Source of the DNA: Tubulanus polymorphus
Taxonomy: Eukaryota; Nemertea; Palaeonemertea; Tubulaniformes; Tubulanidae
Direction: 5' to 3'
Assembly: GCF_964204645.1 (NCBI RefSeq)
Contig: NC_134027.1
Location: 10,032,485 to 10,096,484, forward strand
DNA: 64,000 bases
Positions 40,290 through 58,470 of this stretch are shown in pieces. Every line of letters begins with the position of its first letter. Position 1 is the first letter of the stretch. Below the pieces are notes generated by a model. It saw nothing but the letters and a program-made list of their open reading frames with translations, was not told where the DNA came from and ran no database searches. Position numbers and translations under genes: made by a program.

Positions 40290-41124
40290 ATGGAGACCAC
40301 TCGATTTACAGCCATTTACGTTTATTCGATGGTTTTGTTTGCGTCAACCGGTGGATTCATTTTTGGCTACAACACGGGTACCATGTCCGGAGCGATGATC
40401 TACATCGTGAATGAATTTGATCTCGACACATTTTGGACCGAACTAATAGTGGCAGTGGCAGCCAGTTCGGCCGCTCTGTCCTCGTTCTTGGCCGGACACC
40501 TGAACGATCTTTTGGGTCGCAAACCAACGGCGATTATCAGCAGCTTTATCTGTACGGTGGGGCCCATTCTCAGTGCAGTGGCCCCTGATAGATACTCTCT
40601 GTTGGCCGGACGTATCATCGTTGGAGCTGGAATAGGTAAGGATAAGACAGTGGATGGGTTCGATAACTGTGAGGTATAGAATTTGACTCATAGTTTCCGA
40701 GTTTGATTTAATTTTCAATCAATTCAATTGAAGCCTTGATTTTTCTACTAATCGAATTTTACCCTGGCTTTGGCCAAGTTCTGTAACTAGGGCCAGTTTC
40801 AGGAAAATATTGAAAATATTCTGTTAAATAAATTTGCCATCCAGCTGTTTCCCTGCAAAATTCGAATGCTAGGGCCCCGTGCATATCTCTGTAGTCAGTT
40901 ACCCATTAAATTCGGATACGATATCGTTATTTCAGCATCTTCGCATATATACACTTTACTTCAGGGATGGTAACTGTAACTTCACCAGTCTACATAGCGG
41001 AGTCAACCCCACTCAGATTGCGGGGCCGGGTTACTACGATGTACACCGTGTTCCTTACAATGGGCCAATTTGTTGCTGCTGTTATTAGTGGTGTCTTTAG
41101 TTTTAATGAACAGAATGGCTGGCG
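40290..41124 (+). CDS. SLC2A13/HMIT-like upstream module, two exons encoding TM1-TM5
   Basis: Exons 40290..40635 (phase 1 end) and 40965..41124 (160 nt, phase 2 end). They encode a sugar-transporter N-terminus: GGFIFGYNTGTMSGAM (TM1), LNDLLGRKP (the loop 2-3 GRK motif), LLAGRIIVGAGIG (TM4), then SPVYIAEST and RGRVTTMYTVFLTMGQFVAA (TM5). The start codon gives only a short cytosolic tail. No TM6-TM12 exons follow before the next homologous first exon at 47387. Both splice donors are intact and match the phase of exon 3 at 50699. The module is therefore either an alternative promoter plus first exons of the downstream gene (predicted product about 543 residues) or a truncated tandem duplicate. 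The donor and start show no decay. Confidence 0.75.
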
Positions 41125-43124: not shown

Positions 43125-46100
43125 TCAGTTTTAATGCAGACCTGTCGCCATTATATAATACTCTTTACTATAAAGAGACCATAGAAATTAATGTTTTCCT
43201 TCATTTCATCAGTTTTAATGCAGACCTGTCACCACAGGTCTCGAAAAGCTCTGCAAAATGGCGCGAGCTGCCGTGTGAGGTCTCGCTTCATAATTATTGT
43301 TTTATAGTAACTTAAGATTAATTCTATCCATGGTTAGCAATTTATATTATACTCTTTACTATAAAGAGACCATAAAAATTAATGTTTTCCTTCATTTCAT
43401 CAGTTTTAATGCAGACCTGTCACCACAGGTCTCGAGAAGCTCTGCAAAATGGCGCGAGCTGCCGTGTGAGGTCTCGCTTCATAATTATTGTTTTATAGTA
43501 ACTTAAGATTAATTCTATCCATGGTTAGCAATTTATATTATACTCTTTACTATAAAGAGACCATAAAAATTAATGTTTTCCTTCATTTCATCAGTTTTAA
43601 TGCAGACCTGTCACCACAGGTCTCGAGAAGCTCTGCAAAATGGCGCGTGCTGCCGTGTGAGGTCTCGCTTCAAAATTATTGTTTTATAGTAACTTAAGAT
43701 TAACTCTATCTGTGGTTAGCAATTTATATTATACTTATTACTATATAAAGGTTATAAAAAGTAAAGTTTTTTCCATTTCATCAGTTTTAATGCAGACCTG
43801 TCACCACAGGTCTCGAGAAGCTCTGCAAAATGGCGCGAGCTGCCGTGTGAGGTCTCGCTTCATAATTATTGTTTTATAGTAACTTAAGATTAATTCTATC
43901 CATGGTTAGCAATTTATATTATACTCTTTACTATAAAGAGACCATAAAAATTAATGTTTTCCTTCATTTCATCAGTTTTAATGCAGACCTGTCACCACAG
44001 GTCTCGAGAAGCTCTGCAAAATGGCGCGTGCTGCCGTGTGAGGTCTCGCTTCAAAATTATTGTTTTATGGTAACTTAAGATTAACTCTATCTATGGTTAG
44101 CAATTTATATTATACTTATTACTATATAAAGGTTATAAAAAGTAAAGTTTTTTCCATTTCATCAGTTTTAGTGCAGACCTGTCACCACAGGTCCCGAGAA
44201 GCTCTGCAAAATGGCGCGAGCTGCCGGGTGAGGTCTCGCTTCAAAATTATTGTTTTATAGTAACTTAAGATTAATTCTATCCATGGTTAGCAATTTATAT
44301 TATACTCTTTACTATAAAGAGACCATAAAAATTAATGTTTTCCTTCATTTCATCAGTTTTAATGCAGACCTGTGACCACAGGTCTCGAGAAGCTCTGCAA
44401 AATGGCGCGAGCTGCCGTGTGAGGTCTCGCTTCAAAATTATTGTTTTATGGTAACTTAAGATTAATTCTATCCATGGTTAGCAATTTATATTATACTCTT
44501 TACTATAAAGAGACCATAAAAATTAATGTTTTCCTTCATTTCATCAGTTTTAATGCAGACCTGTCACCACAGGTCTCGAGAAGCTCTGCAAAATGGCGCG
44601 TGCTGCCGTGTGAGGTCTCGCTTCAAAATTATTGTTTTATAGTAACTTAAGATTAATTCTATCCATGGTTAGCAATTTATATTATACTCTTTACTATAAA
44701 GAGACCATAAAAATTAATGTTTTCCTTCATTTCATCAGTTTTAATGCAGACCTGTCACCACAGGTCTCGAGAAGCTCTGCAAAATGGCGCGTGCTGCCGT
44801 GTGAGGTCTCGCTTCAAAATTATTGTTTTATGGTAACTTAAGATTAACTCTATCTGTGGTTAGCAATTTATATTATACTTATTACTATATAAAGGTTATA
44901 AAAAGTAAAGTTTTTTCCATTTCATCAGTTTTAATGCAGACCTGTCACCACAGGTCTCGAGAAGCTCTGCAAAATGGCGCGAGCTGCCGTGTGAGGTCTC
45001 GCTTCATAATTATTGTTTTATAGTAACTTAAGATTAATTCTATCCATGGTTAGCAATTTATATTATACTCTTTACTATAAAGAGACCATAGAAATTAATG
45101 TTTTCCTTCATTTCATCAGTTTTAATGCAGACCTGTGACCACAGGTCTCGAGAAGCTCTGCAAAATGGCGCGTGCTGCCGTGTGAGGTCTCGCTTCAAAA
45201 TTATTGTTTTATAGTAACTTAAGATTAATTCTATCCATGGTTAGCAATTTATATTATACTCTTTACTATAAAGAGACCATAAAAATTAATGTTTTCCTTC
45301 ATTTCATCAGTTTTAATGCAGACCTGTCACCACAGGTCTCGAGAAGCTCTGCAAAATGGCGCGTGCTGCCGTGTGAGGTCTCGCTTCAAAATTATTGTTT
45401 TATGGTAACTTAAGATTAACTCTATCTGTGGTTAGCAATTTATATTATACTTATTACTATATAAAGGTTATAAAAAGTAAAGTTTTTTCCATTTCATCAG
45501 TTTTAATGCAGACCTGTCACCACAGGTCTCGAGAAGCTCTGCAAAATGGCGCGAGCTGCCGTGTGAGGTCTCGCTTCATAATTATTGTTTTATAGTAACT
45601 TAAGATTAATTCTATCCATGGTTAGCAATTTATATTATACTCTTTACTATAAAGAGACCATAAAAATTAATGTTTTCCTTCATTTCATCAGTTTTAATGC
45701 AGACCTGTCACCACAGGTCTCGAGAAGCTCTGCAAAATGGCGCGTGCTGCCGTGTGAGGTCTCGCTTCAAAATTATTGTTTTATGGTAACTTAAGATTAA
45801 CTCTATCTATGGTTAGCAATTTATATTATACTTATTACTATATAAAGGTTATAAAAAGTAAAGTTTTTTCCATTTCATCAGTTTTAGTGCAGACCTGTCA
45901 CCACAGGTCCCGAGAAGCTCTGCAAAATGGCGCGAGCTGCCGGGTGAGGTCTCGCTTCAAAATTATTGTTTTATAGTAACTTAAGATTAATTCTATCCAT
46001 GGTTAGCAATTTATATTATACTCTTTACTATAAAGAGACCATAAAAATTAATGTTTTCCTTCATTTCATCAGTTTTAATGCAGACCTGTGACCACAGGTC

Positions 46101-46735
46101 TCGAGAAGCTCTGCAAAATGGCGCGAGCTGCCGTGTGAGGTCTCGCTTCAAAATTATTGTTTTATGGTAACTTAAGATTAATTCTATCCATGGTTAGCAA
46201 TTTATATTATACTCTTTACTATAAAGAGACCATAAAAATTAATGTTTTCCTTCATTTCATCAGTTTTAATGCAGACCTGTCACCACAGGTCTCGAGAAGC
46301 TCTGCAAAATGGCGCGAAGTTCCGTGTGAGGTCTCGCTTCATAATTATTGTTTTATAGTAACTTAAGATTAACTCTATCTATGGTTAGCAATTGATATTA
46401 TACTCATTACTATAAAGATACCATAAAAATTAAAGTTTTCCTTCATTTCATCAGTTTAAATGCAGACCTGTCACCACAGGTCTCGAGAAGCTCTGCAAAA
46501 TGGCGCGAGCTGCCGTGTGAGGTCTCGCTTCAAAATTATTGTTTTATAGTATTTCAAGATTTAATCTATCTATGGTAAGCATACAATTTTACATTCACCA
46601 TTAGATAGAGATCATAAAAAGTTCAGGTTTTTCTATTTCATCAGTTTTCAAGCAGACCTGTCACCACAGGTCCCGAAGCTCTGCAAAATGGAGCGAGCTG
46701 CCGTGTGAGGTCTCACTAATTAATCACAGTTATGT
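43125..46735. repeat. ~191-bp satellite array, about 19 units
   Basis: Tandem units of 190-191 bp, each containing AGACCTGT, CACC or GACC, then ACAGGTCT (8-bp arm hairpin), followed by TCGAGAAGCTCTGCAAAATG and GGTCTCGCTTCA. Two subtypes interleave: A (CTTTACTATAAAGAGACC) and B (ACTATATAAAGGTTATAAAA). The first unit is internally deleted and the last two are diverged, as expected at array edges. The 66-69-aa ORFs repeated through it are not genes. Confidence 0.95.
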
Positions 46736-47386: not shown

Positions 47387-50300
47387 ATGAGCGACTCTCC
47401 CGACGGTTTTGTCAAACAAAGATCGGCAGCATCGAAGCAACAACAAAAGGAGGATCGTCCGAAAATGTCGGACAAAGAACCGCTGTTAGCAGCTGCGGTT
47501 GCTCCTCCGTCTTCTGACGAATCTGTCGAATTGCAAAACACGGCCGTTTCCTACGGATCTACGCCCGACGACGAAGAAAATGTTCCGAAGAACGAAATTA
47601 ACGGCGATAACAGCCAATCCGATGAAGTACACATGCCGGCGATGACGAATTTTGTCTATGTGATCGCGTTTTTTGCGTGCATCGGTGGATTTTTATTCGG
47701 CTACGACACGGGCGTCGTGTCGGGCGCGATGATCTTCATCGTCAAACAATTCGGCCTCGACGAAGTTTGGACTGAATTGATAGTCAGCGTTACGATTGGA
47801 GCGGCGGCCGTTTTCTCGTTCGTCGGCGGTTTCCTGAACGATAAGTTCGGTCGAAAGCCGACGATTTTACTCGCCAGTTTCATATTCACAGTCGGAGCCG
47901 TAATTCTCGGCTTCTCGCAGAATAAATACCATTTGTTGATCGGTCGTATCGTAATTGGCGCCGGAATTGGTAAGCGTGCCGTCAAATTTTCGGCTTCTAT
48001 TTTTATGTTTTGATTAAAAAATTTCGATTTTTTGCTTTCGAATTTGGGTTTGCCGCAGAAAAACCAATGAAAACCGAAGGAAGTGGTCCATTGTTTTTTG
48101 ACATCTGCTTTATTTGAGAATGAATTAAACTCATCATTTGATCGTCTCCCTAAATGTGCATAGGGCCATTTGCATAAAAGTTAATAGAAGTTAACCACCG
48201 AATATGTACCATAGTTAAGATTAAAGCTGCAGCTATTATGGTATTTCTTCAGCTGGTTTACATCAACCAGACCAGTTGCACAGTCAAAATTTAGATTAAG
48301 ACCTTTCATATATTTATTTTTTATATTGAATCAAGCAGAAACAAATATACCATATATCAAGACCAGTCAAAGCCCAGTCAGACAGTTTAACATGTACGCT
48401 GCTGCCATGTTCTTCCCAGTTGCTAATGTGAGTTATCTATTAGTTGGCAATTGAGTGTATTGTATAGTCAGCCGTTGTTCATAATTGACAAATGATTAGG
48501 CCGATCATTGAGAATGAAGCTGAGTTAGTTTACTTAAGTGTCTGCCAATTGAACTGGATCATGTGTAAATGACCGAGTGTATATCAGACAACTGAATAAT
48601 GAGGATCAGCTATGAGGTAACTCGCATTGGCAATGATAGCTGAACAGTTTCCGTCTATGTCTCACACATTTGACTGCGTAAGTTAATTGGATTCTTAGCA
48701 GATCGAGTCAAGGGGAAAGCAACATGCATGTCACAGAAAAGTCAGGGAAAAGCAAGCCAAATTAGATAAAAGTGGCCCGCCCTGATAATGCTTTGAAATC
48801 GACAAATTTTGCGCGACACATAATTCAAGAAATCTTACTCGAGGTTGTCTTTTCGATCGTAGGTCTCGCTTCAATGACCGTGCCTGTGTACGTCGCCGAG
48901 ACTACGCCGGCCAACGTGCGCGGCCGTCTCGTTACACTTTATACAATGTTCATTACGTTCGGCCAATTCGTCGCCAGTGTCGTAGATGGCGCGTTCAGTT
49001 ATGATAAAGAGAACGGGTGGAGGTGAGTTATTTTATCGTAACTGTTGTAATACCGACTACGATTTTCTGATTTGCCCAGGTTTCACGTCGATGACCACGC
49101 CCGTATACCTCGCCGAAGTGTCGGTGGCCTCGGATAGGGGGCGCGTTGTAACGTTATACCAGATGTCGATAACTGTTGGTATATTATTATCGGGTATAAT
49201 GGCTGGTGCTTTCAGCTATTACCCGACCAGTGGTTGGAGGTAGGGTGTCTCGACTCAGCTATCTCTAACCGAGCATGTAACGTATCTTCGCTTTGTGACA
49301 AGGCAAAAACGTTTCTTTTTTGTTGATGAAACTCAGGACTATATCATGATTCATATGTATTCTATGATACAAAATACATAGTTCATTAAGACAACATTGT
49401 ATTATGAAACATTAACCCTTTCAGTGTGTCTACACACCGCAGTGCGGTGTATAAATCAGCGATAGAGTCAGACTTTGCTAGTACATCGCATCACAGTGTA
49501 TTGATATTAATAGTAATTAGTTTTTATCTATTGAAAGAAGGCAGCACCTGACAAACATAGTCATGTGTAAAGTTACTAACAATACACCGCACCGCGGTGT
49601 AGATGCACTTAAATGGTATGCCCACTGGGGTGGAATTTTTTAAATTTTCAAATTATCTCCAGCACTTTCGGGTATTAATTAGTCAGCACTGCAAGGGTTG
49701 AAATTGGAGGTCAACATGTGTTCCCTTCAAAAATTGCTTAAATGTCTATTATTGAATTGATAATGATGCAATGTAAAAATTACGTAATTATGATATCAAA
49801 TTTATATTTCATGATGTTTAGAATGTATTATTGTCTAAATGAAATATGTACTGATATATTATCCTGAATTTTATTCTGTACACATCATCTGGTGGTTCTT
49901 CGCTAATGAAACTTATTTTCCATATTTCATTCTTTTTTTGTTAACTTTTATAGTTCATTTTTCTATGTTAACCTATATAAAAATTAGGCATAGTAGTTTG
50001 TGCTTCAACTAAACCTTATGACCACTAACATAATTTTAACTTATAGATATGTTTAGAAAACCCACTTTGTTTTGCGACTTTTATTCTTACGTATTTAAAC
50101 ATTAGTTTAATATCACAAACTGAGGGTTAATTTTAATGTGATGTTTTTGGTCTGGTGATGGTTTCGGATATTGAATCGTATTATGCATTAAGTCATTATT
50201 ATAATTATTGTTATATTATTTCGGTCACCTATATGATCATTCATTATTACCGCTATGAAAAAATGACCAGAACATACAGAATTTTCATCCTTAAATGACT

Positions 50301-53300
50301 CAGTCATGAAGAATTAATACTGGAGCTTGTTGCTTAATGGTAGATTTAAGATAACTGGCGGATAAATACCATAGTAACAATGTCAACTATCCACCGGTTA
50401 ACCACTCTAACCAACTTTTAAGCAACTGGCCCCAGGTAGTTATGTCTAGTATGAAAAAGTTATTGGGTTGTTTTGCCCTGAAAGTCAACTCCACTACTTT
50501 GGTATGATACACTTCAACTGGTTGTGCTTACTTAGTTCATTAAGCTGGCCTACGTTCGGGTTTAGCCTGCACTGCTTAATGTCATATCATATTTATTTTC
50601 TGAATAATTTACATCAATGTATAAAAGATATCTAAGACTTATGTTACAATCATTTATTTCTAATAACTGTACGCATCCGTTTGTTCTGAATTTCCCAGGT
50701 ACATGCTCGGACTGGCCGGAGTGCCGTCGGTGATCCAATTCATCGGGTTCTTCTTCATGCCGGAAAGTCCTCGTTGGTTGGTGATCAACGATCGACACGA
50801 GCAGGCGCGTAAAGTTTTGTCGGTCATACGCGACGATCAAGACGTCGATAAAGAGCTCGAAACGATTCAAGAGTCGCTACTGGAGACCCGTCGCGAACAA
50901 AGCGAACATGGTAAACATTAGTATGACCTCTGCATCACTGGGTCCGGAGCCAGATGAACTCCTTCACTACCACAGATAATGTAACGCCTTGCACCGGGAT
51001 TCGAACCCGATGGCGTCATTCAATTCAAATCGATTCAGTATTTGAGGCTCTAGTTAAGAAAATATATTTGCAACGTAAAACAACAATGGGAATGGTTGGC
51101 ACTACAGTTAAACTTGCTTAATCGACCAAAAGGTTTTTTGTGTCCCAGCCATATTAGGTCAGTTTGGTTTTTGCATCGTAGTTAGCGGAATATTTGATAC
51201 AATTTTTAGTCACTCTGAAGGTTATGAATTCAAATTCTTATGGAGCAAATATCGTGTTTTTTTGTTTAAATAAGCATTTTACTTTGGTTGAAGGCAACAG
51301 AAACATACTGGTAGCTATGTTTAAAGATCCTGTCGTCAGGAAAGCGTTAGTAGTTGGCTGTGGGCTGCAAATGTTTCAACAAATCAGCGGAATTAACACT
51401 GTCATGTAAGTTTACTTCAATAGTATTCATACTGGGCACGTACGATAAATAATACACGCATGCTTGGATAGGTAAATCCTTACTTATTTCAATTTCTTTT
51501 CAGGTATTACAGCGCCACAATCATCAAAATGTCCGGAGTTCGAAGCGATTCGTCCGCCGTGTGGTTGGCCGCGTTGACCGCTGCGACTAATTTTCTGTTC
51601 ACATTCGTCGGCCTGTATTTGGTTGAAAAGATCGGCCGCCGATCCCTTATCATATCTAGTCAAGCAGGTACGCAGAAGACATATTTAGTAATGCAGTAGA
51701 TTCCGCTGACCAGTTAGTGGAGTCTGCTGTATAAACTTCTCTGTGATACTAAGTACAAAAAGGATGATGCACTGACAACAGAAAGTGCTATAGTATAGAA
51801 CACTTAGGATGGATTTGATTGATAGCTTACTTTAGTTGCAGTTCCACTGGTAATTTAACTTTATTTCGTTATATTGTTTTAGGTGTTGTATTCAGTCTCA
51901 TAGCTCTAGGGATAGGTTTCAACTTGGCCAGTGTATATTCACCGGATATTACTCAGCATGGGTTCAGCGTCGATCAATGCAACAAATACCAGTAAGTGCG
52001 TTCAAAATATAATAGATACCCTAATTCAAAATATGAAATTTGTGTCTCTGAATTAGAATATCAGGGGCTGGTTTTATAGACCTTAAAGTAAACTTTTGAG
52101 CAACTGGCATCGTCTCCATGTCTAATAGTTGCACTACATTTTAGTTGATTATTCGATAGTCGAATTTAGCCGTTTATCTAATTCCAGATCCTGTGATGCT
52201 TGTATCAGTAATCCGTATTGCGGATTTTGCTATACATCAGATCAAGGCAGCGTTACAAATTCTTCATGCCTCGCGGCGACGAACATTTCGCATGAAAGGT
52301 CGCAATACGGTCCATGTAATCGAACAAATTTAGATGCTAGTCAAATCTGGGCGTACAGCTACTGTCCTACGCCTTATTCCTGGATGGCTGTTGCTGGGCT
52401 TGTTATATACTTAGCATTTTTTGCACCTGGTAAGTCTACAATATTGCGCTAATGCAGGATTTGTGTGACTTCTTCCAAAACTCCCCCCATTTTCCATTTG
52501 AATCTTGATTCCAGCATGGGCTGTACAATTAAATTTAGTTAATTAGGGGAAGATTTGTTTCTTCTAAATTTTCCTATTAGCTGGTACAGTTGAACCTGCT
52601 ATTGGTAGATACTCAATCGATATCTATGAATTATGAGTTTCATGCTGTTTTTGAGAGAAAATTGCATCGAGAAATTATTGATTTGTCTTTGGGATCGGAG
52701 AAATCATAATAATTCGATTCGTTTTTCAGGTATGGGTCCGATGCCATGGACGATAAATAGTGAAATATATCCATTGTGGGCAAGAAGTGCAGGCGCAGCG
52801 GTTGCCACGTCAACGAACTGGATTTTCAATTTGATCATATCCATGACATTCCTATCTTTAACTCTTTCCATTACAAAATACGGTGAGTCTGTGTCCACGA
52901 AAGCGGGTGGGGGAGGAGTGACATTCTATTTTACTTCACGATTCTTTTATTTCACGATTCATCCAAACGACAATGGTGTCATTCTCCCAACTTTGTAACT
53001 CCCAAAATCACGTGACAGATATATTTATTGATTTAGATATAACATCCCTATTTTAGAATTTTGAATGAAACTTTTCTACATACATAAGCGTTAACAGAGC
53101 AACCCATGTTACTTCCTAAGTTCCCCAGCAATTGGAACCTTACGATACAGAACTACTGACTGACTGAATGTGTAAACAGTGGACCTGTGAAACTTAGTGG
53201 TTGGGATGGTTTAGTCATTCTAGTCACTCCCTCTTTCAAGATGGCCACCATTACTTAAACATACTGGAATGACATACACTTGTAACTTTCATCACCATCT

Positions 53301-53529
53301 GTAGTCCCTTTGCCACGCTGACCACCTACCCACCATAAAATACTCTGGATATACTCATGCTGATGTTTGTTTTTGCTTTTTTTAAAATTTTTCAGGTGCT
53401 TTCTACTTATACGGCTGTTTAGCGTTTTTGGGCTTGTTGTTCTCGATATGGCTTGTGCCAGAAACCAAGGGCAAACAACTGGAAGAAGTGCAAGAATTGT
53501 TCAAAAAACCATGGCTGAAGTGTTGCTGA
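47387..53529 (+). CDS. SLC2A13: SLC2A13-type proton/myo-inositol cotransporter (HMIT), complete
   Basis: Twelve-TM major-facilitator sugar transporter. Exons 47387..47969, then 48863..49022 (2a) or 49080..49239 (2b), 50699..50910, 51294..51405, 51504..51667, 51883..51991, 52188..52429, 52730..52882, 53396..53529. With one exon 2 the product is 622 residues; human HMIT is about 648. Family signatures: [47 protein letters not shown] (TM7 substrate face), [26 protein letters not shown] (TM10) and PETKG. The Cys-rich exoplasmic loop 9 ([14 protein letters not shown]) is diagnostic of HMIT as against ordinary GLUTs. HMIT imports myo-inositol with H+. The Asp/Glu-rich N-terminal tail is cytosolic. 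Confidence 0.93.
48863..49022 (+). CDS. SLC2A13: SLC2A13-like alternative exon 2a (canonical HMIT TM5)
   Basis: 160 nt, phase 1 in and phase 2 out. Encodes [20 protein letters not shown], then [20 protein letters not shown] and [13 protein letters not shown]. This is the version closest to vertebrate HMIT ([14 protein letters not shown] there). Thr occupies the position equivalent to GLUT1 Gln161. Acceptor AG at 48861-48862, donor GTGAGT after 49022. Confidence 0.9.
49080..49239 (+). CDS. SLC2A13: SLC2A13-like alternative exon 2b (GLUT-like TM5)
   Basis: 160 nt with the same phases as exon 2a, only 57 nt downstream of it. Encodes [20 protein letters not shown], then [20 protein letters not shown] and [13 protein letters not shown]. 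The Gln in [12 protein letters not shown] aligns with GLUT1 Gln161 (TLHQLGIVVGIL), a hexose-contact residue, where exon 2a has Thr. Including or skipping both copies shifts the frame, so use should be mutually exclusive. Confidence 0.85.
49412..49701. mobile_element. piggyBac-type MITE, copy 4
   Basis: TTAACCCTTTCAGTG at the left and GCACTGCAAGGGTTGA at the right. Same orientation as copy 3. It lies in the intron after the alternative exons of the SLC2A13-like gene. Confidence 0.8.
50940..51015 (-). repeat. tRNA-derived SINE fragment
   Basis: The minus strand contains CGGGTTCGAATCCCGGTGC, a strong Pol III B box/T-arm, with GACGCC and GGCGTT either side. No anticodon arm or A box was found, so it is not a tRNA gene. 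It lies in the SLC2A13-like intron after exon 3. Confidence 0.5.
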
Positions 53530-56074: not shown

Positions 56075-57531
56075 CTATTGGAGGGATCTATATACATCTA
56101 AGCCGGTCTTAATGAATTTAGCTAAGTTGACCGTTGGGTTTTTCAGAATATCAAGGGTATTAAAGGTATTCAAATTCAAAAAGTTTTTGCGTTGTTCGTT
56201 AAGTAAGGTACAGTCAAACAGAATATGGGATTCGTCACCTAAAGTATTACAAGTGGGGCATATTCTATCGGCTCTGTCTAAATGAAGGTTTGAAAATTTG
56301 TTCACAGGTAAAATATAGGACCCGACCCTAAATTCAAATAAACTAGTTCCTAAGTCATCACCAAGTTCTATTATATACTTCTCTAACCTAATATCATTTT
56401 TATATTGCCTAAAGTTAGTGTATATCGGATTAGTATTTATGGCAGATACAGTTTCTTGAAGGTGCTGGTCACGGAGTATCTGTTTTATTCGTTTTGAAAA
56501 AGATTTACTGTTAGTCATGAATTGCTGCGTCCAAATGCAGGACAAACCACAGTCATCAAACGTTTTCTTTATATATGATAACCAAGGGCTCATAAATTTA
56601 TCCCTTAAAAATAAATTGAAAGATATTTTATAGAGTATTGAATTAAGTTTGGTTTGCTTTCCAGATACTGTTTTCACCCAAAAGTTAATCATCCTGCGTC
56701 TAACATCTATATTCATAGGGTAACGTCCTAGCTCTGATAAAACTTGTAAGTTGCGAGAATATTTCGTCACTTTCATTAAGATTTTACAGAAGAAGCAATG
56801 AATATTTTCTAATAAATCAAGATTTTCATATCCCCAGATCTCACACCCATACATGGCTATTGGAGCAACACACGTATCAAATAATTTAAACATAACATCT
56901 ATGGGCAATTTCAAACGTCTGCCTTTTTGAACGATCGAAAACATAGCTCTGATAGCTTTATCGTAAAGATACTTTTTTGCCTTAGCAAAGTTACCATTCC
57001 AATTGAATTTTACTCCGAGATAAACATAATCTTCAACTACCTCTAACTCTTGATCACCAAACATAAATTTCGAAATCGTTTTTATCCGGGATTTACTTCG
57101 CGCAAATACTAGTACTTTAGTTTTCTCTGAGTTAACAGTGAGACCATTAGCGGCGCAATATTCAAATAAGGTATCTAAGTGTAGCTGAAGAGATTTCTCA
57201 TCCTCAGCAAGAATAACTGTATCATCTGCGTATAGTATTATGAATAAATTCAGTAAAGTATCAATATCCTGATCACGATTCAAATTTAGTTTTTCTATAA
57301 ATGACAAAGTCGGTTTTCCACGATCAATGAAAAATTCTACAATGTCGTTTAAGAATAACGAAAAGAGGATAGGTGAGAGATTTTCGCCTTGTCTTAAGCC
57401 TCTATCAGCTGCAAAGTATTGTGACGTGCAACCATTTAATTCAACACATGATTTTATGGAGTTATACATATTTTTGACCACATTGAAAAAGTTTCCATTA
57501 ACACTGTTAGCAATTAATTTTCGCCATAACT
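56075..57531 (-). pseudogene. LINE ORF2 fragment: C-terminal half of reverse transcriptase and zinc motif
   Basis: Continues the RT in another frame: GLRQGENLSPILFSLFLNDI, the catalytic ILYADDTVILAED box, NGLTVNSEKTKVLVF and the thumb. The C-terminus has CPTCNTLGDESHILFDC, the Cys-Cys-His-Cys motif common at LINE ORF2 ends. The largest open part is 56075-57481, and similarity continues upstream to the frameshift near 57557. Apart from that one deletion the copy is open, so it is recent. Confidence 0.88.
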
Positions 57532-58470
57532 TTACCCTACAAATCGAGTCGAAAGCTTTCTTAAATCAACAAAGGCGCAAAAAAGTCTTCTTCCCTGACA
57601 AAGATACAGCTCTACGATTGTTTTAAGCGTGTAAATATGATCAATGGTGGAATATTTCGATCTAAAGCCAGCCTGGGCTTCACTTATAATGTGATTCGTA
57701 TCTAGAAATGTTGACAATCTTTGATTTAGGATACTTGTAAATAATTTACCAAGACAGCTAACTAAGGTAATACCTCTATAATTATCAGGATTAGAGGGAT
57801 CGCCATTCTTTTTGAAAATGGGTTTGATGACGCCTATAGACCACATCTCTGGAACATATCCTGTTTTAAGAACTAAATTGAATAATTTTTGTAATATATC
57901 AACTAAAAACGGATACTGACTAACTCCCAACAGCTCATTCGTGATTCCATCAATGCCTGGGGCCTTATTGTTTTTGAGTAAAGAGATAGCCTTAATTACC
58001 TCATCACTGGTTATATCACTGTTCAAAATATAATTGTCATAGACAGGATGGTCACCCACGTCTGGGGGCTCATCACCGTCATCGGTTTCATTGTTAACAT
58101 TATTCAAATCATTTAATCTCATAAAATGTTCAAGAAAAATATCAATATCTATATTAGCCTCATTATTTTTTGTTCCGCTCGCAGAGTTTAGCATCGACCA
58201 ATACTTTTTTGGGTTATTAATTTCGCATTCTCTCAATTCCTTAATAAATTCATCCTTTTGTTTCTTCTTATTTTCTCGGATGACCTTTTTATAGTTTTTA
58301 GACGAGTTCTTAAGGGATTCAAAATTGGAAAGAGTAGGGCAACCCCTATATCTTTTTTTCATATAATTATATTTCTTCTGTGCATCTCTACAGTCCCTGC
58401 CAAACCATCTGTTGCGGACCGGTTTTTTGCAGTTATTACTTTTCCTACATTTGGCAAAGAAGTGCGACAT
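57532..58470 (-). pseudogene. LINE ORF2 fragment: linker and N-terminal half of reverse transcriptase
   Basis: 312 codons. Basic linker, then the RT fingers: NNKAPGIDGITNELL, GVIKPIFKKNGDPSNPDNYR, GITLVSCLGKLF, NQRLSTFL and SEAQAGFRSKYSTIDHI. The frame breaks inside the first palm motif (AFVDLRK), where the catalytic Asp motif should follow. A single base is missing at about 57555-57560 and reading shifts to a stop. The endonuclease domain is absent. Confidence 0.88.

What the first reader, a model, noticed from the sequence alone, without database searches (positions are those of the whole stretch)
48863..49239. Mutually exclusive exon 2a/2b in an SLC2A13-like transporter may switch substrate specificity
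Two 160-nt exons with identical phases lie 57 nt apart. Including or skipping both shifts the frame, and 57 nt is probably too short to splice. Exon 2a keeps the HMIT TM5. Exon 2b puts Gln at the GLUT1 Gln161-equivalent position and a GLUT-like VGIL motif in TM5, the helix that contacts sugar. One gene could thus yield an inositol-type and a hexose-type transporter.
Basis: partly seen in the sequence, partly recalled or inferred. Interest (0 to 1): 0.85.

Follow-up and report, generated by a model that had tools for sequence, protein, structure and literature searches.

The report
Sugar transporter with swappable binding helix
One animal gene for an inositol-type transporter carries two interchangeable versions of the exon that builds the sugar-contacting helix, and the second version carries residues typical of glucose-type transporters, so splicing alone may change what the protein carries.

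Summary
A nine-exon SLC2A13/HMIT-like gene (47387-53529, +) contains two 160-nt exons, 2a and 2b, with identical phases, 57 nt apart. Either gives an open 622-aa protein; both, or neither, gives an early stop. The 57-nt gap is shorter than the introns I could measure (minimum 98 nt here, about 84 nt in 35 myosin introns). 2b is a diverged copy of 2a whose divergence does not look neutral. At the three TM5 positions named for the GLUT5 sugar cavity, 2a has Thr/Ile/Gln and 2b Gln/Ile/Ile, as in GLUT5. Among 80 prokaryotic porters, inositol-catabolism genes lie near 12 of 18 without that Gln and 0 of 62 with it. Mutually exclusive splicing is likely; a shift toward hexose-type recognition is plausible but untested. 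Against it, 2b breaks two conserved positions and is not more hexose-like elsewhere. Upstream (40290-41124) lies a third open TM1-TM5 module without a 3' half, with Asn where proton symporters carry Asp; it could splice in frame onto exons 3-9. No RNA or eukaryotic relatives were available.

The parts
47387..47969 (+). Exon 1 (ATG; N-terminal tail, TM1 with Asp of the GYDTG motif, into TM4)
   Evidence: open frame, donor TTG|GTAAGC
48863..49022 (+). Exon 2a: end of TM4 to TM5, HMIT-type (Thr, Ile, Thr, Gln at GLUT1 161/164/165/168)
49023..49079 (+). 57-nt gap between 2a and 2b, probably too short to be spliced
   Evidence: branch-point-like A at 8, 13, 19, 28 and 48 nt from the 5' splice site (consensus matches only); intron sizes
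49080..49239 (+). Exon 2b: alternative TM4/TM5, hexose-type residues (Gln, Ile, Thr, Ile)
50699..50910 (+). Exon 3 (PESPRWL loop), shared
51294..51405 (+). Exon 4 (FQQISGIN of TM7), shared
51504..51667 (+). Exon 5, shared
51883..51991 (+). Exon 6, shared
   Evidence: end corrected by one base
52188..52429 (+). Exon 7 (Cys-rich extracellular loop, by recall typical of HMIT), shared
52730..52882 (+). Exon 8 (GPMPW and TNW motifs), shared
53396..53529 (+). Exon 9 and stop, shared
40290..40635 (+). Exon 1' of an upstream 5' half copy; TM1 has Asn (GYNTG) where exon 1 has Asp
40965..41124 (+). Exon 2' of the upstream copy: 160 nt, same phases, donor GCG|GTAAGT; phase-compatible with exon 3

Best explanation
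Exons 2a and 2b are a mutually exclusive pair made by tandem duplication of exon 2 in an SLC2A13/HMIT-like gene. The intervening 57 nt is too short to be spliced as an intron, and frameshift spoils any transcript with both or neither exon (anatomy shown; exclusive use inferred). Exon 2a gives an HMIT-type TM5; exon 2b installs the Gln that in hexose porters is the one N-bundle residue seen to coordinate glucose, together with Ile in place of the HMIT-type Gln seven residues further on. The two isoforms share TM1 with its presumed proton-coupling Asp and the whole second half. Hence 2a most likely makes a proton/inositol transporter and 2b a proton-coupled transporter with altered, hexose-leaning recognition (inferred).
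For: Anatomy. Both variants fit the Sugar_tr model (94-aa segments: 2a 115.5 bits, 2b 100.7). Mapping to GLUT5 166/169/173 and GLUT1 161/164/168. Constraint: codon-position mismatches 22/12/35 and 52% protein identity at 56% nucleotide identity, not reproduced by neutral models. Switch codons ACA to CAG and CAA to ATA, joint neutral probability about 1.5e-4 (3 of 20000 runs at 0.6 changes per site). Prokaryotic test: iol genes near 12 of 18 porters lacking the Gln and 0 of 62 with it; QITI, the quadruple of 2b, is the commonest, 48 of 80. Two further porters next to iolE (besides L033 seen again) also lack the Gln. [quoted passage not shown]
Against: No RNA evidence of either junction. 2b has Val at GLUT1-149, Pro in 62 of 62 Gln-type and 12 of 12 iol-linked porters, and Ala at 175, Asn or Asp in 62 of 62 Gln-type (exon 2' has Ser there). 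Summed log-ratio toward Gln-type porters is +7.3 while the two switched sites alone give +9.6. Isoform B scores below A on the SP and XylE models. Absence of stops alone is weak: 927 of 4000 neutral runs kept an open frame. Third-position excess on the 2b branch alone gives p 0.058 or 0.012 by outgroup. The prokaryotic loci are related to one another, so the counts are not independent. GLUT5 Q166E data are mixed (PMC7462842, passage), and the abstract of PMC10322154 (start seen) says that sugar-coordinating residues differ little among GLUTs of different preference, so residues at this site need not decide the substrate.
Confidence: 0.55

Rival explanations
1. The exons are mutually exclusive, but 2b tunes affinity, turnover or location while the substrate remains inositol or another polyol, as NKCC2 exon 4 variants tune ion affinity without changing the ions.
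For: 2b differs from 2a at 25 of 52 positions, most of them outside the sugar site, including two conserved ones. NKCC2 precedent (passages of PMC7818487).
Against: Two of the three TM5 positions named for the GLUT5 cavity changed, each by more than one base, to exactly the GLUT5 residues, while the third stayed.
Confidence: 0.23
2. 2b is a relaxed or dead duplicate exon that is rarely or never used; only 2a matters.
For: 2b evolves faster than 2a (35-37% identity to the other two copies against 54-58% for 2a), breaks Pro149 and Asn/Asp175, and its donor GAG|GTAGGG is by eye weaker than GAG|GTGAGT of 2a.
Against: No stop or indel, both splice sites kept, third-position excess, GC3 0.60 like its neighbours. 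In 9000 neutral runs none matched both identities; the codon-position pattern alone was reached in about 2.
Confidence: 0.15
3. 2b is a regulatory poison exon: joined 2a-2b transcripts are made to trigger decay and lower expression.
For: Joint inclusion shifts the frame and hits a stop after 18 codons.
Against: A poison exon needs no conserved transporter helix; the 57-nt gap is shorter than the introns measured.
Confidence: 0.05

Closest known systems
NKCC2 (SLC12A1) exons 4B/4A/4F
   Same: Homologous tandem exons, one used at a time, encode a transmembrane helix plus loop and specify ion affinity (passages of PMC7818487).
   Different: Different family, same ions in all variants. Here two sugar-contact residues of a sugar porter switch between two patterns that go with different substrates.
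Human mutually exclusive exons of SLC25A3 and SLC39A14
   Same: Solute carriers cited as having mutually exclusive exons in PMC5740500 (passages).
   Different: Not sugar porters. In that main text 'slc2' occurs 5 times, the same number as SLC25A3, so no SLC2 gene seems to be named.
OGDH exons 4a/4b and alpha-tropomyosin
   Different: Their introns are longer (118-131 nt for OGDH in birds and mammals) with mapped branch points; here the whole gap is 57 nt and branch points are only consensus matches.
SLC2A13 / HMIT (GLUT13)
   Same: Sugar-porter family, TM1 Asp, HMIT-type TM5 in isoform A; long loop and likeness to human HMIT are recalled.
   Different: A second exon 2 is not known to me, and the listings show none.

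Membership tests
Sugar porter (SP) family | Family model above curated cut-off | tested here: met
   TIGR00879: isoform A 400.9 bits, isoform B 380.9, cut-off 237.8
SLC2A13 / HMIT | Proton-coupling Asp in TM1 | tested here: met
   GYDTG aligns to GYDNG of GlcP and GYDLG of STP10; presence only, coupling not assayed
SLC2A13 / HMIT | Orthology by tree with animal HMITs | not tested
   No eukaryotic relatives in the collections used; Cys-rich loop and TM5 likeness to human HMIT are recalled
SLC2A13 / HMIT | Proton-coupled myo-inositol transport | not testable with these tools
   needs a transport assay
Mutually exclusive exon pair | Adjacent homologous exons of equal length and phase, open | tested here: met
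Mutually exclusive exon pair | Frameshift on joint inclusion or skipping | tested here: met
Mutually exclusive exon pair | 5' splice site to branch point distance under about 50 nt | tested here: inconclusive
   all TNAY matches lie within 48 nt, but branch points are not mapped
Mutually exclusive exon pair | Exclusive use in RNA | not testable with these tools
   no reads available
Hexose-type porter (isoform B) | TM5 Gln/Ile/Ile at GLUT5 166/169/173 | tested here: met
Hexose-type porter (isoform B) | Other conserved TM4-TM5 residues (Pro149, Asn/Asp175 in GLUT1 numbering) | tested here: not met
   Val and Ala in 2b
Hexose-type porter (isoform B) | Hexose transport | not testable with these tools
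   needs a transport assay

The most novel reading that the evidence does not exclude
The locus is a modular transporter gene with three alternative TM1-TM5 halves on one shared second half: exon 1 with 2a (proton-coupled, inositol-type), exon 1 with 2b (proton-coupled, hexose-type), and 1'-2' from an upstream promoter (Asn in TM1, so perhaps uncoupled, inositol-type). Splicing and promoter choice would then set substrate class and proton coupling separately.
Probability: 0.25. Interest if true: 0.85.

Novelty: new variant of a known kind. Interest (0 to 1): 0.64.

Why it matters
How far TM5 residues set substrate choice in sugar porters is not settled; the GLUT5 Q166E mutant, for instance, gave mixed results (PMC7462842, passage). 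Here evolution supplies a matched pair of proteins that differ at 25 residues, all within one 52-residue cassette, so that the sugar-contact helix alone is exchanged. If the isoforms differ in substrate, the question becomes testable with two cDNAs and their point mutants, and substrate choice by splicing would be shown for a sugar porter. A proton-coupled hexose symporter of the GLUT family in an animal would, as far as I recall, also be unusual.

Tried and rejected
Import of 2b from a GLUT gene: not favoured, since 2b is closest to 2a (53.7%) against 37-39% for the other HMIT-type copies, and the genome search with a 2b query gave 2a as its best match outside the gene's own 2b and exon 3 and no other 2b-like exon (only the best candidates are scored). 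A second 2b-like exon in the paralog at C3:3.50-3.51 Mb: none in its intron 2, 5361 nt without N. Exons 3-9 belonging to the upstream 5' half: none recognised between 41125 and 47386 and none left over elsewhere, though such searches can miss weak matches. dN/dS by counting was useless because synonymous sites are saturated (rows of that call with exon 2' used a start one base off and are discarded, corrected). Grouping of 2a with 2b has 68% bootstrap support on 52 residues. (30 loci of the 80 given, 29 genomes, list cut) served only to find iol regions. Rows in the operon count: L036, L041, L056 (IolG-like at 29-30%), L072 (iolA only, 84%) and L086 (aldehyde dehydrogenase 32%, the one Gln-type locus with any hit) were counted as not iol-linked. 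In the seven Glu/Gln loci the only iol gene seen is an IolG-like one at 58-59%, judged by identity. In L052, L053 and L057 the porter lies several kb from the operon and may be there by chance; without them 9 of 18 against 0 of 62. Several loci are short contigs, so absence there is weak. In the ten iolE regions (seven genomes, three regions cut by contig ends), seven gave no readable TM4-TM6 match; one of these, L099, had a weak partial porter match. In the intron estimate a very short intron could hide inside a match, and uncorrected gaps go down to 75 nt. Structure prediction was not run, because a spliced protein is not a contiguous reading of the window. The species was not identified.

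Full report
What is there. The window lies in a 267.8-Mb assembly of 77 contigs, contig C3; the species is unknown, an animal by its genes. On the + strand I assembled a nine-exon gene, 47387-53529, whose product is a sugar-porter protein of 622 aa (TIGR00879 400.9 bits, cut-off 237.8). The TM1 motif GYDTG, with the Asp used for proton coupling in related symporters, aligns to the same Asp in GlcP and STP10. The long Cys-rich loop encoded by exon 7 is, by recall, typical of SLC2A13/HMIT. Orthology was not tested by a tree.

The exon pair. Exons 2a (48863-49022) and 2b (49080-49239) are each 160 nt with the same phases and canonical borders. Either gives a 622-aa open frame. Both together give a stop after 18 codons of 2b; skipping both gives a stop after 10 further codons in exon 3. 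2a and 2b share 29 of 54 residues; the other two HMIT-type exon 2 sequences of the genome, exon 2' and the paralog (which has a near-identical copy on contig C13), match 2b at 37-39% and 2a at 56-59%. So 2b most likely comes from 2a, although the grouping has only 68% bootstrap support.

Can the 57 nt be spliced? The other introns of the gene are 98 nt or longer. Thirty-five myosin introns estimated from neighbouring matches have a minimum near 84 nt (from 66 hand-entered rows of the 91); a shorter intron hidden inside a match would be missed. Branch-point-like adenosines in the gap lie 8, 13, 19, 28 and 48 nt from the 5' splice site, under the roughly 50-nt steric threshold given in PMC7969005 and PMC5740500 (passages). 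Exclusivity is therefore enforced twice on paper. It is not shown in RNA.

Is 2b under selection? Mismatches between 2a and 2b fall 22/12/35 on codon positions 1/2/3. When 2a is mutated neutrally to the same nucleotide identity, protein identity never reaches the observed 0.519 (maximum 0.481 in 4000 runs), although 927 of those 4000 keep an open frame, so lack of stops alone means little. With a constrained 2a and a neutral 2b, 0 of 9000 runs match both identities with an open frame, and about 2 of 9000 reach the codon-position pattern alone. These simulations take present 2a as ancestor. On the 2b branch alone the third-position excess gives p 0.058 or 0.012 depending on the outgroup (counts). 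2b evolves faster than 2a, so partial relaxation or positive selection is possible.

What changes. The 2b segment aligns to GLUT1 (5eqg, 1-93 to 125-217) and rat GLUT5 numbering (4ybq, 2-92 to 131-221) over equal spans, and the printed alignment with 4yb9 is ungapped. This places the 2b Gln at GLUT1-161/GLUT5-166 and its two Ile at GLUT1-164 and -168, GLUT5-169 and -173. PMC10582729 (passage) names Gln166, Ile169 and Ile173 among the residues of the GLUT5 central cavity; [quoted passage not shown] 2a has Thr, Ile, Gln there; exon 2' has Thr, Leu, Gln and the paralog Val, Ile, Gln (read from sequences). Of five other sugar porters fetched from this genome, four have Gln and one Glu at 161, with Ile or Leu at 168 (read by eye; the sixth fetched locus did not look like a sugar porter and was dropped).

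A test of the inositol/hexose reading. I fetched 80 prokaryotic relatives, the cap of the call (473 candidates were confirmed). At 161/168 they are Gln/Ile 60, Glu/Gln 7, Asn/Ile 6, Thr/Ile 5, Gln/Val 2. Relatives, at 49% identity or more, of iolB, C, D, E or G proteins whose identity was confirmed by curated models lie in the fetched flanks of 12 of 18 porters without the Gln and 0 of 62 with it (Fisher p 3e-10, but the loci are related and several flanks are short). All seven Glu/Gln porters are linked, through an IolG-like gene only. Ten regions taken round iolE held three readable porters: two new ones, both Glu/Gln, and a Thr/Ile one on the contig of L033. The quadruple of 2b, QITI, is the commonest, 48 of 80. 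Loss of the TM5 Gln thus goes with inositol genes; 2a fits that side, 2b the other. That the Gln-type porters carry hexoses is inferred from the solved members and the literature, not tested for these 62.

Results against. At GLUT1-149 2b has Val where all 62 Gln-type and all 12 iol-linked porters have Pro; at 175 it has Ala where all 62 have Asn or Asp (exon 2' has Ser). The two switched sites give +9.6 of a net +7.3 log-ratio, so the remainder of 2b leans slightly the other way. Literature on GLUT5 Q166E is mixed: better glucose binding, no improved glucose transport shown (PMC7462842, passage). The abstract of PMC10322154, start seen, says that sugar-coordinating residues differ little among GLUTs of different preference.

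A third module. At 40290-41124 lie exons 1' and 2', open over 115 and 52 codons, about 54% identical to exons 1 and 2a. A neutral run of that length at 0.4 changes per site stays open about 3% of the time. Exon 2' is again 160 nt in the same phases with donor GTAAGT. No exons 3-9 were recognised before 47387, and no unassigned set elsewhere. Joined in silico to exons 3-9 they give an open 543-aa protein. Its TM1 has Asn where exon 1 has Asp; the same difference separates uniporter GLUT1 (Asn29) from symporter XylE (Asp27) according to the abstract of PMC5491310, which adds that more than this residue is needed. Either the module is an alternative 5' end, or a whole gene copy lost its 3' half recently, perhaps with growth of the 191-bp tandem array at 43151-46714. 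The sequence alone cannot decide.

Known or new. Mutually exclusive exons that tune transporters are known: NKCC2 exon 4 variants specify ion affinity (PMC7818487, passages), and SLC25A3 and SLC39A14 are cited in PMC5740500 (passages). For the sugar-porter family I found none: one search returned 0 papers; the listings (4 papers; 15; 6; 12 shown of 1201, none of the 12 holding 'mutually exclusive exons') have no title on it. Of the papers listed there I looked into only PMC7462842, and not for this point. The library lacks most subscription journals. I therefore call it a new variant of a known kind.

Noticed in passing
40290-41124: Open TM1-TM5 half of a second HMIT-like gene, with Asn at the TM1 Asp position and no recognised exons 3-9; may be an alternative 5' module of the main gene.
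   Followed up: partly
43151-46714: Tandem array, 191-bp unit, 18.7 copies, also reported with a 381-bp period, between the 5' half copy and the main gene.
   Followed up: no
G000:C4:4125126-4126944: Four successive matches to the same Myosin_head positions (about 119-152) in what looks like one myosin gene, possibly a mutually exclusive exon cluster of the kind known in other animals (comparison recalled).
   Followed up: no
G000:C3:3498378-3513000 and C13:74320-89500: Another HMIT-type gene present twice, about 99% identical over the fetched parts, the second on a 244-kb contig: possibly an unmerged haplotype copy.
   Followed up: partly
56075-58470, minus strand: Two ORFs (468 and 312 aa) that look by eye like pieces of a LINE reverse transcriptase.
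   Followed up: no
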